A DNA stretch of 64,000 nt from Phormidium tenue FACHB-1052. Its GTDB lineage: Bacteria > Cyanobacteriota > Cyanobacteriia > Phormidesmidales > Phormidesmidaceae. The stretch is from assembly GCF_014696675.1 (NCBI RefSeq), contig NZ_JACJQN010000001.1, forward strand, positions 1 through 64,000, read 5' to 3'. Positions within the stretch are counted from its first letter, which is position 1. The number at the start of each line of letters is the position of its first letter. A program made the translations under genes and the position numbers. Under the pieces are notes generated by a model, which saw nothing but the letters and a program-made list of their open reading frames with translations, had not been told where the DNA came from and searched no databases. Shown here one piece after another: positions 9,233 to 19,266 of this stretch.

Positions 9233-10771
9233 TTACCGTTCTAAAGCCGAAATATCTAGCTCGGCTAGGGAAGTGAAAAACGCCTGCAGGCGCTGCGCTA
9301 TTTTAGCCACTCCATCGGGCACATTCGACTCAATATTCAGCGGCAGCACCGGGTCGTGGAGCGACATCCGCATCATAAACCAGCCGTCTTCGTCGGGCGA
9401 CTGGCAGGCAACACGCACTCCTTCGTAGGTGTTGGGCACCACCGCCCAATCGGTCTGGGTGGCAACAAAGTCTTTGAGCTGATTCATGACTTCAGCACCA
9501 CGGCTCTGGGCATTGGCAGCCAGAATTGTGAGCCGATACTCCTGGCTGTCGTGGGGGTCTTGCAGCGTGGCAATTAGGTCGGTGAGGCGTTTGCCGGTGA
9601 GGCGGGCTTTGGCCAGTTCGACCAGCAGTTTGCTGACCAGGTAAGCGCCATCGTCTAAGAAGTAGTTTTCTTTCATGGCCCCGTGCCCCGAGGCCTCGAT
9701 CGCAAGCCAGCTAGGCTGACCGCTCTCGTTGAGCCGAATCGCCTCGTTGATCACATTCTTATAGCCCCGCTTAAAGCGATGGTGAATGCCCCCCAGGTCG
9801 CCTTCAATAAACCGGGTGAGCCCATCGGAGGTGGTGGAGTCGGTGACGATGGTGGTGCCGGGGTGCTCTTGCAGCACGATCGCAGAGATCAGCGCAATTA
9901 AACGGTTGCGGTTGAGTTCGCGCCCGTCGGCGTCTACCGCTGCGCCGCGATCGACATCAGTATCGAAAATTAGGCCAAAGTCGGCCCCCTGGGCGACTAC
10001 GGCTTGGCAGATCGAGGCGATCGCCGCTGCATCTTCAGGGTTGGGCACGTGGTTAGGGAAGGTGCCATCGGGGTCGAGGAATTGGCTGCCGGTGGTGTCT
10101 GCTCCCAGGGGTTCGAGCACCTGGCTGGCGAAAAAGCCGCCCGCCCCGTTGCCCGCATCGACAATAATTTTGAGCCCGTGCAGCGGTCGGTCAAAGTTGT
10201 CGGGATGGTTCACCGACTGGCGGATTTTCTGCACTAAGCCCGCCGCGTAGGCACCAATCAAGTCGCGGCTCTCTACTAATCCGGGGGCTGTCGCTGTAGA
10301 GAAATTGCCCCGCTCAGCCAATTCTAAAATGCGCGAAATATCCCCTTTGCCGAGACCACCCTGGCGAGTGAAAAACTTGAGGCCGTTGCGGTTGAAGGGC
10401 AGATGGCTGGCGGTCATCATAATCGCGCCGTGGCAGCTAAACTCGGGCAGCACGGTGGCCATAAACATAGCCGGGGTCGAGGCCATGCCCACATCCATCA
10501 CCCGACAGCCCAGGGAGGCCATGCCGTCGATCACGGCCTGCATTAGGGTGGGGCCAGAGAGGCGGCTGTCGCGACCGACAGCGATCGCCAATTCTGCCGC
10601 TGGCAGGCCTAACTCTGAAGCAAGCCAGGTGGCAAAAGCTTTGCCCAGAATGGTGGCCACGTCAGGGGTGAGGTTCACAGCTTGACCCGCCACCCCCTCT
10701 AGGGCAACGCCGCGAATGTCGGAGCCGTTTTGCAACGCGGCCCAGTTGATGGATGTGGTGGATGGGGGCAT
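9233..10771 (-). CDS. phosphoglucomutase/phosphomannomutase family protein
   Basis: 512-residue alpha-D-phosphohexomutase moving phosphate between C1 and C6 of hexose phosphates, feeding glycogen or nucleotide-sugar synthesis. The phosphoserine loop is MMTASHLPFNRNGLKFF with Ser122 (most relatives read TASHNP; this subgroup has SHLP). The Mg site FDTDVDRG has Asp270, Asp272 and Asp274. The sugar loop is EASGHGAMKEN, and a C-terminal phosphate-binding domain contains NTYEGVRV. AGGAG lies 12 nt before the ATG. It heads a two-gene unit with the AI-2E protein. Gluco- versus manno- preference cannot be decided. Confidence 0.9.
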   Translation of the reverse strand: MPPSTTSINWAALQNGSDIRGVALEGVAGQAVNLTPDVATILGKAFATWLASELGLPAAELAIAVGRDSRLSGPTLMQAVIDGMASLGCRVMDVGMASTPAMFMATVLPEFSCHGAIMMTASHLPFNRNGLKFFTRQGGLGKGDISRILELAERGNFSTATAPGLVESRDLIGAYAAGLVQKIRQSVNHPDNFDRPLHGLKIIVDAGNGAGGFFASQVLEPLGADTTGSQFLDPDGTFPNHVPNPEDAAAIASICQAVVAQGADFGLIFDTDVDRGAAVDADGRELNRNRLIALISAIVLQEHPGTTIVTDSTTSDGLTRFIEGDLGGIHHRFKRGYKNVINEAIRLNESGQPSWLAIEASGHGAMKENYFLDDGAYLVSKLLVELAKARLTGKRLTDLIATLQDPHDSQEYRLTILAANAQSRGAEVMNQLKDFVATQTDWAVVPNTYEGVRVACQSPDEDGWFMMRMSLHDPVLPLNIESNVPDGVAKIAQRLQAFFTSLAELDISALER

Positions 10772-10934
10772 GGGGGGCGATCGCTCCTGCTGTCGTCCCC
10801 TTCACCATAGAAGCAGCCCCCGGTTTCCGCCGATTTCTTCAGCTTTTTTGCACCTGATCGCTAAGTTCCAACCCATTCAAGCAGCTTCCCTTAAGGAAGC
10901 CACTAAACTTAAAACAAGCCCATCGGTAACTGCT

Positions 10935-11498
10935 ATGGTCGCCTACTCCCAACCCTGGACTACCCGCGATCTGGCCGCCATGCCCGACGACGGCGGCTGG
11001 AAGCGCTACGAAATTATTGACGGAGAGCTCTACGTGACCCGTGCCCCCCACATTCGCCACCAGGGTACAGCCGGAAAGCTGCATGTACGTTTAGAAAACT
11101 GGTCTGAGCAGACGGGGTTGGGCTCTGCATTTCAGGCTCCGGGGGTCGTTTTTACCCCTACAGATGCTGTGATTCCTGATGTGGTGTGGATTAGCCAAAC
11201 ACGTTTAGCCGATGGGGTAGACGATGCGGGGCATCTCATTGTGGCCCCAGAGCTGATGGTGGAGGTGCTTTCCCCCGGCGACCTCAACGAGCAGCGCGAT
11301 CGCGAAGTTAAGCTCAAACTCTATTCCCGCTACGGGGTGCAGGAATATTGGATCGTCAACTGGCAACTCAAAACCCTGGAAATCTATCGTCGCGCTGAAG
11401 CCCAGCTCCAGTTGGTCGGTACGCTCTTGGTTGACGACACGCTATCGTCTCCGCTACTGCCAGGCTTCAGTACTCCCATGGCTGAGTTCTTTCGCTAA
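10935..11498 (+). CDS. Uma2 family protein (PD-(D/E)XK nuclease fold)
   Basis: 187 residues of the Uma2/DUF820 family, very expanded in cyanobacteria and built on a restriction-endonuclease-like fold. Seen: the N-terminal block DGGWKRYEIIDGELY, HQGTAGKLHVRLENW, then the catalytic-type residues: Asp in VIPDVVWI, Glu-x-Leu-Ser in LMVEVLSPG, and REVKLKLYSRYGVQEYWIVN. The ATG at 10935 suits the family N-terminus. The upstream 10783-10857 and the 3' half recur at 17049-17413 as a decayed second copy. Function of the family in vivo is unknown; an association with transposition or defence has been suggested. Confidence 0.88.
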   Translation: MVAYSQPWTTRDLAAMPDDGGWKRYEIIDGELYVTRAPHIRHQGTAGKLHVRLENWSEQTGLGSAFQAPGVVFTPTDAVIPDVVWISQTRLADGVDDAGHLIVAPELMVEVLSPGDLNEQRDREVKLKLYSRYGVQEYWIVNWQLKTLEIYRRAEAQLQLVGTLLVDDTLSSPLLPGFSTPMAEFFR

Positions 11499-11626
11499 GT
11501 CAGCACAGCCTCAGTAGGTCGAAAGCAAATTCTCGCAAGGGAGCTAGCCCACCCTGCGGGAAGCAAGCTACGCTCTTAATTCCTCTGCCCAGCTGGAAGC
11601 AGGACCTTGAACAGGAATTGTATGGG

Positions 11627-17048: not shown

Positions 17049-17413
17049 GCTCCTACTGTTGTCCCCTTCACCATAGAAGCAGCCCTTGACTTCTGCCAAT
17101 TTCTTCAGCTTTTTAGCACCTGAGGCTGATGGTATGGACGATGGGGACACCTCATTGTGGCTCTAGAGCTATGGTAGAGGTGCTTTCCTCGGTGATCTGA
17201 ACGAGCAGCGAGATAGAGAAGTTAAGCTCAAACTCTATTCCCGCTACGGGGTGCAGGAGTATTGGATTGTTAGCTGGCACCTCAAAACCCTGAAAATTTA
17301 TCGTCGCGCCGAGGCTCAGGTTCAGTTGGTCAGGACGCTATTGGAGGGTGACGCCCTAAACTCTCCGTATATTGCCAGGTTTTAGCACCCCAATGACTGA
17401 GATTTTTCGCTAG
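17049..17413 (+). pseudogene. decayed duplicate of the Uma2 gene and its upstream region
   Basis: 17049-17123 matches the upstream region at 10783-10857 (GTCCCCTTCACCATAGAAGC is identical). The copy then jumps to the 3' half of Uma2: 17124-17413 matches 11209-11498, for example the shared GTTAAGCTCAAACTCTATTC. About 350 bp between the blocks are missing, and small indels break the frame (GAGCTATGGTAGAGG against GAGCTGATGGTGGAGG). It cannot encode a functional protein. With the intact gene it forms direct repeats around the PAS kinase. Confidence 0.88.
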
Positions 17414-17516: not shown

Positions 17517-18059
17517 TTAAGTGAAGTCTTTCTGAACTTGGGTAATAGCCTGGTGAAAAACATCTGAATGAATCCAGCCGACAAAACCCCCAAAAACCAT
17601 ATTTCCTTTTTCATCTGCAATAAATACATGATCTACACCTACAGGATTTTTCCAAGTTTTTACCACTGAGCCATCACAAAGCTGAAACTGTGATACTGCA
17701 CGGTTAAAATCCCGCCTATGGGCTTGAGTCATTCCTGGCACTTGATTCAGAATACTTATAACTTTCTTTGTGATATTAGACGTGGATCTTTGACTTTCAG
17801 CTTCCTGCTTGCAATCCTGTGAATCATCTACAGGGGTTTGATATCCGTTGCCTTCACAATATTCCTTGAGAATTTCGTATGACTCATTAATCTTCTGCAA
17901 CCTTTGATGAGCGCGTTTCTGTAAATTAGAATTGCCATGAAATCGATCTGGATGCCAAATCTGAACTAGTTCCTTGTAAGAGGTTCTAATTTCGTCCAAG
18001 GAAGCACCTGGCTTAAGTTCAAGAACTGCTAAGTGTTTATGAATATTTTGATTGTCCAT
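17517..18059 (-). CDS. J-domain protein with a C-terminal module shared with the adjacent LRAT-like protein
   Basis: 180 residues. A J domain occupies about 7-70 with the Hsp70-stimulating HPD at 36-38 (QIWHPDRFHG) and the closing INESYEILKE helix. A hydrophilic linker (72-95) follows. The second half (about 110-178: RRDFNRAVSQFQLCDG, GVDHVFIAD, FGGFVGW) is not a known DnaJ zinc or substrate domain. The same residues with the same spacing occur at the end of the LRAT-like protein encoded 35 bp upstream. The region is visibly AT-richer than its neighbours, suggesting transfer. Probably a dedicated co-chaperone or adaptor for a nearby partner; that is inference. Confidence 0.75.
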   Translation of the reverse strand: MDNQNIHKHLAVLELKPGASLDEIRTSYKELVQIWHPDRFHGNSNLQKRAHQRLQKINESYEILKEYCEGNGYQTPVDDSQDCKQEAESQRSTSNITKKVISILNQVPGMTQAHRRDFNRAVSQFQLCDGSVVKTWKNPVGVDHVFIADEKGNMVFGGFVGWIHSDVFHQAITQVQKDFT

Positions 18060-18094
18060 ATTTCAATTACTTTTTTAAACACGAAAATGTTGCA

Positions 18095-18805
18095 TCAACA
18101 TCCACGCAATTGGCGAACAATGCCTAAAATCTCACCTCTTCCAACGAGAGCACCAAAATGCGCCAAAACAACCGAGTTGTAGCTTGACTCAAAATCCTCT
18201 AATTTGGAAATAGATGTTACATACAAGTGTTGTCCTCCCAAAGAGTGACTTAGATGATAGGTGTAGTAACCGTCTCTTAATTGGCTAACAAAAATAGCAT
18301 TTTCAAAGTCCTTCCTTGACAATCTTGCAGGGCCGCAAAACTGGCATCTTAGCAAAGCATCACGCAGTTGATTAAGATCGTGAATCATAGGCTGACTAGT
18401 AAATGGATCTTTGTCTGTAAACAAGTGCCAAACACTTTGCTCAGAGTTTGGTGTTTGTCTAGTCACATAATTTGCAAAATGCTCACAGTTGCGGTGGCCT
18501 AAATGGTAATCGATTCCTGTGGTCATCTGATTAATTCGCTCTAGTATAGATTGCTCACTTGCTCCAGTACGTTTTTCTAGAGTAATATCTTGAATTTCTC
18601 CATTACTCCCTAACCACTTGTACTCTGTTTCAACTTTAGAAAGAATTTTTCTTTCAACGTGTCCCTTGCCGCCCATCCACGACATTCCATCCCAAGGCCC
18701 CCAACCGACCGTTTCTCCATTGCCAACATAGACAAAGAAATGACGGGTATGAGCAAAAAGTGGAACTGATAAAATGTCCCCGACTTTAAGGTGCATAAGA
18801 TCCAA
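18095..18805 (-). CDS. LRAT-like (NlpC/P60-related) acyltransferase/peptidase-fold protein with a novel C-terminal module
   Basis: 236 residues. Residues about 6-115 resemble lecithin:retinol acyltransferase domains: KVGDILSVPLFAHTRHFFVYVGNGETVGW with the first catalytic-type His22, and the diagnostic NCEHFANYV (106-114) with nucleophile Cys107. Known LRAT-fold enzymes use a Cys-His pair for acyl transfer or hydrolysis. Residues about 160-235 form a second module (SRKDFENAIFVSQLRDG, GGQHLYVTS, HFGALVGRG) also present in the downstream J-domain protein. It starts 34 bp after the HicB stop and precedes the J gene by 35 bp, all on one strand. Substrate unknown. Confidence 0.72.
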   Translation of the reverse strand: MDLMHLKVGDILSVPLFAHTRHFFVYVGNGETVGWGPWDGMSWMGGKGHVERKILSKVETEYKWLGSNGEIQDITLEKRTGASEQSILERINQMTTGIDYHLGHRNCEHFANYVTRQTPNSEQSVWHLFTDKDPFTSQPMIHDLNQLRDALLRCQFCGPARLSRKDFENAIFVSQLRDGYYTYHLSHSLGGQHLYVTSISKLEDFESSYNSVVLAHFGALVGRGEILGIVRQLRGC

Positions 18806-18839: not shown

Positions 18840-19064
18840 TTAGGCGGCGATGTAGATAATATTAGGTTCTGGTAGCGGTTCGTCTGTAGCTTCATAGGCA
18901 ATTACAAGCGATTCTAACGCTTCATATCCATTGGTGGCCGCTTCGGCATAGGTGTCTCCGTGGGTTCGCCATTTCTGGCCTGGAAAATCGGGAAAACCTA
19001 CCAGGAAGCTTTGATCTTCTTCAGACCATTGAATAACCATTTGATATTTGAGAGGGTTAGTCAT
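18840..19064 (-). CDS. hicB: HicB-family antitoxin
   Basis: 74-residue HicB-type antitoxin with the partial RNase H fold: YQMVIQWSEEDQSFLVGFPDFPG, then THGDTYAEAATNGYEALESLVIAY. It has no C-terminal helix-turn-helix or ribbon DNA-binding extension, so it is the short class that neutralises HicA by binding. Its start overlaps the hicA stop by 8 bp, which indicates translational coupling. Confidence 0.88.
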   Translation of the reverse strand: MTNPLKYQMVIQWSEEDQSFLVGFPDFPGQKWRTHGDTYAEAATNGYEALESLVIAYEATDEPLPEPNIIYIAA

Positions 19065-19266
19065 GCTCTTGACTCCTTATTGTTTGAATTGCGTTATTAA
19101 CTTCCTTTTCTTGATAGGGCTTAGCATCTGCACTATCTTTACCAGAAACAGTGATTTTGCCAGGATAGAGAGGATGTGTCCAGTTGGTATGGCTACCCTT
19201 GCCAGGAACTTCTTGAAACCCGGCCTGACGTAACTTCCGCTTTAACTCCCGGATTTTTTGAGGCAT
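19057..19266 (-). CDS. hicA: HicA-family mRNA interferase toxin
   Basis: 69 residues with a dsRNA-binding-like fold. The HicA signature is present: RELKRKLRQAGFQEVPGKG, catalytic His26 in GKGSHTNWTHP, and the basic C-terminal helix. HicA toxins cleave mRNA and are blocked by HicB. The start lies 9 bp downstream of the aminopeptidase stop on the same strand, so read-through from that gene may contribute to expression. Confidence 0.88.
   Translation of the reverse strand: MPQKIRELKRKLRQAGFQEVPGKGSHTNWTHPLYPGKITVSGKDSADAKPYQEKEVNNAIQTIRSQEHD

What the first reader, a model, noticed from the sequence alone, without database searches (positions are those of the whole stretch)
17517..18805. J-domain protein and LRAT-like protein share a previously unnoticed C-terminal module
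Seen: residues 115-149 of the J-domain protein and 164-198 of the LRAT-like protein align without gaps. Identical positions include Arg, Asp-Phe, Ala, Gln-Leu, Asp-Gly, Gly and His (RRDFNRAVSQFQLCDG against RKDFENAIFVSQLRDG, then GVDH against GGQH exactly 14 residues later). A second match, F-G-x-[FL]-V-G, follows with a 12-residue insertion in the LRAT protein. About ten of 35 residues are identical. Known: LRAT folds are Cys-His acyl-transfer or protease-like enzymes; J domains recruit Hsp70. Inference: the module lets the two adjacent gene products bind the same partner or each other, forming an enzyme-chaperone system carried as a transferred AT-rich cassette.
Basis: partly seen in the sequence, partly recalled or inferred. 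Interest (0 to 1): 0.75.

Follow-up and report, generated by a model that had tools for sequence, protein, structure and literature searches.

The report
Shared adaptor module in cyanobacterial effectors
Two neighbouring genes, a chaperone helper and a lipid-enzyme relative, really do end in related versions of an unnamed protein module that cyanobacteria attach to many enzymes, one of them inside a predicted defence operon, and the module probably links such proteins to each other.

Summary
The J-protein's C-terminus (residues 101-180, "A") is a mobile ~80-residue module without a Pfam match, at 46 places in 34 of 292 genomes of the phylum, on hydrolase-like, DUF726, GUN4, TIR and membrane proteins or alone. 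The LRAT protein's C-terminus (141-236, "B") is a rare, divergent form. A and B are related by profile comparison, also with every window sequence removed (E 1.1e-5).

Two finds go further. In a same-genus genome a like J domain is fused directly to B. In Anabaena cylindrica B sits in a CHAT protein beside iSTAND, MoxR and vWA genes, a known kind of conflict operon. In Pseudanabaena a stand-alone A gene lies next-but-one to LRAT-B in 5 of 7 loci.

Best reading: A and B act like effector-associated adaptor domains; J(A) may bring Hsp70 to the LRAT enzyme. Homology and mobility are well supported; A-B binding, Hsp70 control and lipid substrate are inferred.

The parts
17517..18059 (-). J-domain protein, 180 aa: J domain + linker + module A
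17862..18029 (-). J domain (residues 11-66)
   Evidence: Pfam PF00226 42 bits, cut-off 27.8
17946..17954 (-). HPD motif of the J domain (residues 36-38), intact
   Evidence: read in the translation; that HPD contacts Hsp70 is recalled
17520..17759 (-). Module A (residues 101-180), predicted helix - short helix - four strands - helix
18095..18796 (-). LRAT-like protein, 233 aa from the likely ATG start (TTG ORF to 18805)
18461..18790 (-). LRAT domain (residues 6-115, TTG numbering)
   Evidence: Pfam PF04970 42.1 bits, cut-off 24.3; HRASLS/PLAAT structures by sequence
18740..18742 (-). Predicted catalytic His22 of the LRAT domain
   Evidence: alignment to 4dpz; role recalled
18485..18487 (-). 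Predicted catalytic Cys107 (NCEHF)
   Evidence: alignment to 4dpz; role recalled
18098..18385 (-). Module B (residues 141-236, TTG numbering), divergent relative of module A with an inserted helix before strand 4
18840..19064 (-). HicB-like protein, 74 aa, just upstream; probably a separate passenger
   Evidence: Pfam HicB_lk_antitox 24.4 bits, under the 27 cut-off
19057..19266 (-). HicA toxin homologue, 69 aa; probably a separate passenger
   Evidence: Pfam HicA_toxin 42.9 bits, cut-off 27; DNA like the HicAB genes, without LRAT or J, near the same gene in G406

Best explanation
The two C-termini are forms (A and B) of one unnamed alpha+beta module of about 80-95 residues that cyanobacteria attach to enzymes and signalling domains. 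It works like an effector-associated adaptor domain: it couples the domain it is fused to with another carrier, sometimes encoded next door. In the window the LRAT-like protein is the likely effector (a Cys-His lipid hydrolase or acyltransferase). The J protein carries an intact HPD motif and probably recruits DnaK (Hsp70); through A it would dock on B, or on a shared partner, and so deliver Hsp70 to hold, fold or release the LRAT enzyme. The cassette was acquired horizontally. Supported by results here: homology of A and B, mobility, pairing in gene clusters, like J domains fused to either form, and B inside a conflict operon. Inferred: A-B contact, Hsp70 control, lipid substrate.
For: A-B homology. 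Reciprocal search: the 20 best non-B hits of the B model among 8926 ORFs (138 of them A carriers, repeats of the same genes included) are all A carriers, though each is weak alone (E 0.01 to 0.11) and many are kin. Matching predicted elements. J domain fused to B in G405. Stand-alone A gene in one cluster with LRAT-B in 5 of 7 Pseudanabaena loci, and next to a hydrolase-like gene carrying A in G462. Of the 80 loci kept from genome contigs the best match to the window's A, 64% identical, is the Pseudanabaena mucicola A that is paired with LRAT-B; in the tree the window's A joins that group (SH-aLRT 86). Adjacent A-A pairs, one partner with GUN4. CHAT-B next to iSTAND, MoxR, vWA and FGE-sulfatase genes. 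TIR-A on a plasmid. Permuted NlpC/P60 relatives act on lipids (PMC12994826 and PMC7387801, passages seen).
Against: No interaction was tested. A and B in the window are very divergent, whereas EAD copies in adjacent genes tend to be close kin (PMC7159879 section 30). B lacks the W-x-H motif that is invariant in the 58 aligned A rows. Apart from groups of close relatives, neighbours of A carriers are not conserved in the 80 loci. An hhalign run with the -glob 0 option gave only 13% probability, E 4.9e-4. In the sequence-profile search the window's LRAT ranks below four chance ORFs. Only one of five AlphaFold models of B was good and one middling. None of the 29 other fetched J proteins carries A or B. 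The third HRASLS active-site residue is Gly in the window LRAT (its role recalled).
Confidence: 0.55

Rival explanations
1. The module is a sensory or targeting domain that binds a small ligand, lipid or membrane surface and regulates the enzyme fused to it; adjacent carriers simply answer the same signal and do not touch.
For: Many carriers are hydrolase-like, LRAT or membrane-like proteins; A has invariant Phe, Gly, Val, Trp and His columns that could form a site; 78 of the 80 genome-contig loci hold a single A gene and neighbours vary; one carrier has a GUN4 domain, called tetrapyrrole-binding in PMC7159879.
Against: J, TIR and CHAT carriers share no lipid theme; pairs of carriers in one cluster recur; B lacks the W-x-H motif.
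Confidence: 0.25
2. Toxin and immunity: LRAT-B is a membrane-attacking toxin and the A protein (alone or J-fused) is its inhibitor or chaperone antitoxin.
For: A permuted NlpC/P60 toxin is a phospholipase (PMC12994826, passages); a small A gene precedes LRAT-B in 5 Pseudanabaena loci; HicAB lies next door.
Against: G282 has LRAT-B without an A gene in the 12 kb read, though an A-bearing frame lies elsewhere in its genome; the G405 genome has J-B but no match to the LRAT domain part; A is found in 34 and the LRAT C-terminus in 2 of 292 genomes.
Confidence: 0.14
3. The likeness is coincidence or short-motif convergence.
Against: the matching predicted elements, and like J domains fused to either form.
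Confidence: 0.04

Closest known systems
Effector-associated domains (EADs) of MoxR-vWA and GTPase-centred conflict systems (Kaur et al. 2020, PMC7159879; section 30 read, passages of other sections seen)
   Same: Small module at the ends of effector and signalling proteins, several copies per genome, copies in adjacent genes; B lies in an effector of a MoxR-vWA-iSTAND operon.
   Different: No EAD model matched in Pfam for 58 module-A rows; no copy seen fused to a VMAP, iSTAND or GAP1 core protein among the carriers looked at; the window's neighbouring copies are divergent, not close kin.
LRAT-like permuted NlpC/P60 enzymes (HRASLS/PLAAT; bacterial Tox-Act1 and LnsA as relatives, passages of PMC12994826 and PMC7387801)
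   Same: LRAT domain over the Pfam cut-off; His and NCEHF Cys aligned with HRASLS.
   Different: Extra C-terminal module B; the third active-site position (His in HRASLS, recalled) is Gly, and Glu in Pseudanabaena; activity unknown.
Class C-type J-domain proteins (class name recalled)
   Same: J domain with HPD joined to an unrelated C-terminal domain.
   Different: The C-terminal domain is module A (B in G405); none of 29 other J proteins, fetched among the best-scoring, has either.
DUF1508/YegP fold (family of these entries recalled; that PF07411 is DUF1508 is)
   Same: Structures taken to be of this kind appear in both structure lists (3bid Z 4.1, rmsd 3.0, 48 aligned; 2k8e Z 2.4, rmsd 4.2, 49 aligned).
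   Different: Z too low to mean kinship; PF07411 finds nothing in 18 relatives, own genome included.

Membership tests
Effector-associated domain (EAD) | Several copies per genome fused to different effector or signalling domains | tested here: met
   Own genome: A on the J protein and on two proteins with hydrolase-type GxSxG motifs (by eye), B on LRAT; elsewhere TIR, CHAT, GUN4, DUF726 by Pfam
Effector-associated domain (EAD) | A second copy in an adjacent gene of the same operon | tested here: met
   Window J-A and LRAT-B; 5 of 7 Pseudanabaena loci, with one gene between; L086 and L095, both of one species; G462. Not general: 2 of 80 genome-contig loci hold two A genes. Operons are judged from order and strand only
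Effector-associated domain (EAD) | One copy fused to a core component (VMAP, iSTAND, Ubl, GAP1) | tested here: inconclusive
   None seen; the CHAT-B operon has an iSTAND gene but it carries an EAD9-like coiled part, not A or B. Only some carriers were scanned with Pfam
Effector-associated domain (EAD) | Adjacent copies are closest kin | tested here: inconclusive
   The L086/L095 and L031 pairs group together in the tree; not so the window's A and B
Effector-associated domain (EAD) | Match to a described EAD model | tested here: not met
   58 module-A rows against Pfam, best E 0.01 to an unrelated family, no EAD model listed; the library holds at least EAD9. Only Pfam models were tested, and A rows only
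LRAT (PF04970) | Domain over the curated cut-off | tested here: met
   42.1 against 24.3 bits
LRAT (PF04970) | Catalytic His and Cys | tested here: met
   His22 and Cys107 align with 4dpz
LRAT (PF04970) | Third polar active-site residue (His in HRASLS, recalled) | tested here: not met
   Gly34 in the window; Glu in Pseudanabaena. So it is an LRAT-domain protein, but the HRASLS triad is incomplete
LRAT (PF04970) | Lipid hydrolase or acyltransferase activity | not testable with these tools
   Needs an assay
J-domain protein | J domain with HPD | tested here: met
   PF00226 42 bits; HPD at residues 36-38
HicAB toxin-antitoxin | HicA and HicB over the Pfam cut-offs | tested here: inconclusive
   HicA 42.9 bits, over; HicB_lk 24.4 bits, under its 27 cut-off
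MoxR-vWA-iSTAND ternary system (Anabaena locus, not the window) | MoxR, vWA and iSTAND genes together | tested here: met
   AAA_5 4.7e-9 on the annotated MoxR ATPase, VWA_CoxE 5.9e-10, iSTAND 2.2e-11

The most novel reading that the evidence does not exclude
A and B are a heterotypic docking pair, so the window encodes a chaperone-delivered lipid effector: a J protein uses a plug-in adaptor module to put Hsp70 on an LRAT enzyme. Cyanobacteria reuse the same plug across lipases, TIR, CHAT proteases and J proteins as a general effector-coupling code.
Probability: 0.3. Interest if true: 0.8.

Novelty: new variant of a known kind. Interest (0 to 1): 0.62.

Why it matters
It defines a domain family with no Pfam match that ties chaperone recruitment, LRAT-type lipid enzymes, alpha/beta-hydrolase-like proteins, TIR and a CHAT protein together, and places one form of it in a known class of conflict operon. 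It gives a testable way in which Hsp70 could be directed to a bacterial effector, and a handle for annotating many unnamed cyanobacterial genes.

Tried and rejected
Pairwise statistics alone were judged too weak. NCBIfam, PHROGs and PADLOC: no family explains A or B; PADLOC gave only weak PDC-M09A matches to the Gly-rich membrane part of other carriers. PDB by sequence: nothing for the module-A profile at E 10. Foldseek and VIA-align: no solved fold stands out (best Foldseek E 0.13 for A and 0.33 for B; best VIA Z 4.8, rmsd 4.2, 77 aligned, 2ovi, for A, and 3.4, rmsd 4.8, 78 aligned, 3lgo, for B), so the fold's kin are unknown, not absent. Viral contigs: pattern scans found no relative of A or B; phage records: no match. 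The 'serine/threonine kinase' label on the Nostoc HK-01 carrier is not borne out by Pfam. Weak B-like hits in G148 and G293 and G643: the ORFs around those in G293 and G643 show no convincing B; G148 was not examined. HicAB as part of the module system was set aside. An earlier 53-row A model was reached by 2 shuffles of the window's B, against 0 with the final model. Papers: the listings showed no description of this module, and passages of PMC8195603 none either; that is not proof of absence in print.

Full report
The observation. The J protein is 17517-18059 (-), 180 aa, and the LRAT protein 18095-18805 (-), 236 aa from TTG; relatives align from the ATG at 18796. The stretch is AT-rich: J 38.9% and LRAT 41.5% G+C against 57.2% for the window (profile). 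J 115-149 and LRAT 164-198 share 10 of 35 residues without gaps. The pair scores E 7e-4 in BLASTP and 1 of 1000 shuffles reaches the gapped score. Given the many pairs a reader can compare, that is only a lead.

Module A is real and mobile. A search of the own genome with the J protein brought in two proteins with hydrolase-type GxSxG motifs (by eye) that carry the same C-terminus. A three-row profile found it at 46 places in 34 of 292 genomes of the window's phylum at E 0.001; the phylum is cyanobacterial judging by the named relatives. In genome contigs 101 stretches fit the pattern, 98 encoded relatives and the best 80 were kept; all 80 titles are cyanobacterial (18 relatives were not seen). 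By a script's rule the 80 are 30 with a hydrolase-sized front, 28 Gly-rich membrane-like proteins, 18 short or cut forms and 4 others. Single carriers include GUN4 (Pfam 1.4e-36) and DUF726 (1.1e-52) proteins and a plasmid TIR protein (6.6e-18). Of 58 module rows (57 of the 80 loci after thinning, plus the window) none matches a Pfam family better than E 0.01. A pattern scan of viral contigs and a tblastn of phage records gave no relative.

With this model no shuffle reached the real score (5000 shuffles of each of two B sequences, of which 3923 and 3770 gave a score); with an earlier 53-row model 2 did for the window's B. Profile against profile: probability 73%, E 3e-5, 0 of 1500 column shuffles; 280 windows of real protein families reach at most 17.4 against 29.4. 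With the Anabaena B added: 81%, E 1.2e-5, 0 of 1000. With every window sequence removed: 82%, E 1.1e-5. In reverse, the 20 best non-B hits of the B model among 8926 ORFs are all A carriers, each weak alone (E 0.01 to 0.11); of the 25 listed one is not. An hhalign run with the -glob 0 option gave only 13%, E 4.9e-4.

Structure. Module A with 58 sequences: pLDDT 95.5. B from two sequences: best model 83.0, others 71.0, 46.3, 45.0 and 40.9. In protein numbering A is H95-105, H115-118, E122-126, E132-137, E143-148, E154-160, H162-179. B is H144-153, E157-159, H164-169, E171-175, E181-186, E192-197, H205-210, E212-218, H225-234. At offset 49 strands 1-3 coincide exactly and helix 2 starts together. 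B has two more elements, a short strand before helix 2 (A has two strand residues near there) and a helix before strand 4; its last helix is shorter. No solved structure matches clearly. The two models could not be superposed here, because no coordinates were at hand.

Fusions and clusters. In the own family 2 of 63 genomes match the LRAT protein: the window's and same-genus G405, the latter over residues 137-236 only. In G405 a J domain (63% identical to the window's) is fused directly to B, near an ORF that looks like a conjugative relaxase (by eye). None of 29 other fetched J proteins carries A or B. In the family of G282 7 of 38 genomes have LRAT-B. These are taken as Pseudanabaena, because G469 matches the named record of P. 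mucicola gene by gene. In 5 of these 7 a stand-alone A gene of about 119 aa lies upstream on the same strand with one variable gene between: about 180 aa with a membrane-like start in four, 247 aa in one. G282 lacks the A gene in the 12 kb read; the G455 contig ends just upstream. Close forms of this A gene (77% or more) occur in 6 of 38 genomes: those five, and G462, where it follows a hydrolase-like gene carrying A at a contig end. Fisher p for this A with LRAT-B is 2.4e-4, but the genomes are kin. The window's A lies nearest this A in the tree (SH-aLRT 86, under the tool's mark of 95; 80 columns) and in the genome contigs list (64%).

Conflict context. On Anabaena cylindrica plasmid pANACY.03, B (51% identical) sits in a CHAT protein: CHAT 65-340, B 381-473, EAD9-like 505-562 (18.8 bits, below its cut-off of 25). 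The next genes are an iSTAND protein with a like coiled start, an annotated MoxR ATPase, a vWA protein and an FGE-sulfatase protein. This fits the iSTAND ternary systems of PMC7159879 (section 30 read, passages of other sections seen). That paper defines effector-associated domains as small non-enzymatic adaptors, often with a copy in an adjacent gene.

Transfer. 26 of 26 same-genus genomes have the neighbouring aminopeptidase. For 10 of the 25 others I fetched the stretch downstream: no DNA there matches the J-LRAT part, and three are collinear with the window up to about 17124 and again from 19278. G406 has DNA like the HicAB genes there but no LRAT match in its genome, so HicAB is probably a separate passenger.

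Mechanism. Shown by computation: A and B are related, mobile, paired in gene clusters, and like J domains occur with either. Inferred: they dock on each other or on one partner; the J protein (HPD intact) brings DnaK; the LRAT protein (His22 and Cys107 aligned with HRASLS, third position Gly) acts on lipids, as related permuted NlpC/P60 proteins do (passages). The main rival is a ligand- or membrane-binding regulatory domain.

Noticed in passing
window 17125-17412: This stretch and window ~11210-11500 match the same place in same-genus genomes, so it looks like a duplicated fragment of the ORF at 10716-11498 beside the cassette.
   Followed up: partly
L149:5134-5877 and L055:3719-4441: Gene before LRAT-B in two genomes: 247/240 aa with an R-x4-H motif as in HEPN proteins (by eye, motif recalled; the 247-aa one has no convincing Pfam match).
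   Followed up: partly
L150:6227-6772, L148, L151, L152: In four other LRAT-B loci the middle gene is a ~180-aa protein with a membrane-like N-terminus (by eye); the middle place looks like a variable effector slot.
   Followed up: partly
L095:1515-2843 and L086: Oscillatoria sp. SIO1A7: stand-alone module A gene directly before a module A + GUN4 gene.
   Followed up: partly
L146:994-2574: A relaxase-like ORF (by eye) upstream of the J-B gene in G405, suggesting a plasmid or conjugative element.
   Followed up: no
L231:5942-13675: Anabaena cylindrica pANACY.03 holds a MoxR-vWA-iSTAND operon whose CHAT protein and iSTAND protein share an EAD9-like coiled segment.
   Followed up: partly
L232:5452-9412: Gloeothece citriformis plasmid pP742404: TIR + module A gene near a TIR-SLOG gene (LD_cluster2).
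   Followed up: partly
L031:1501-2674 and L033: Two related genomes (G255, G262) have a second, short module-A frame (92 and 70 aa) beside a longer module-A gene; perhaps a remnant.
   Followed up: no
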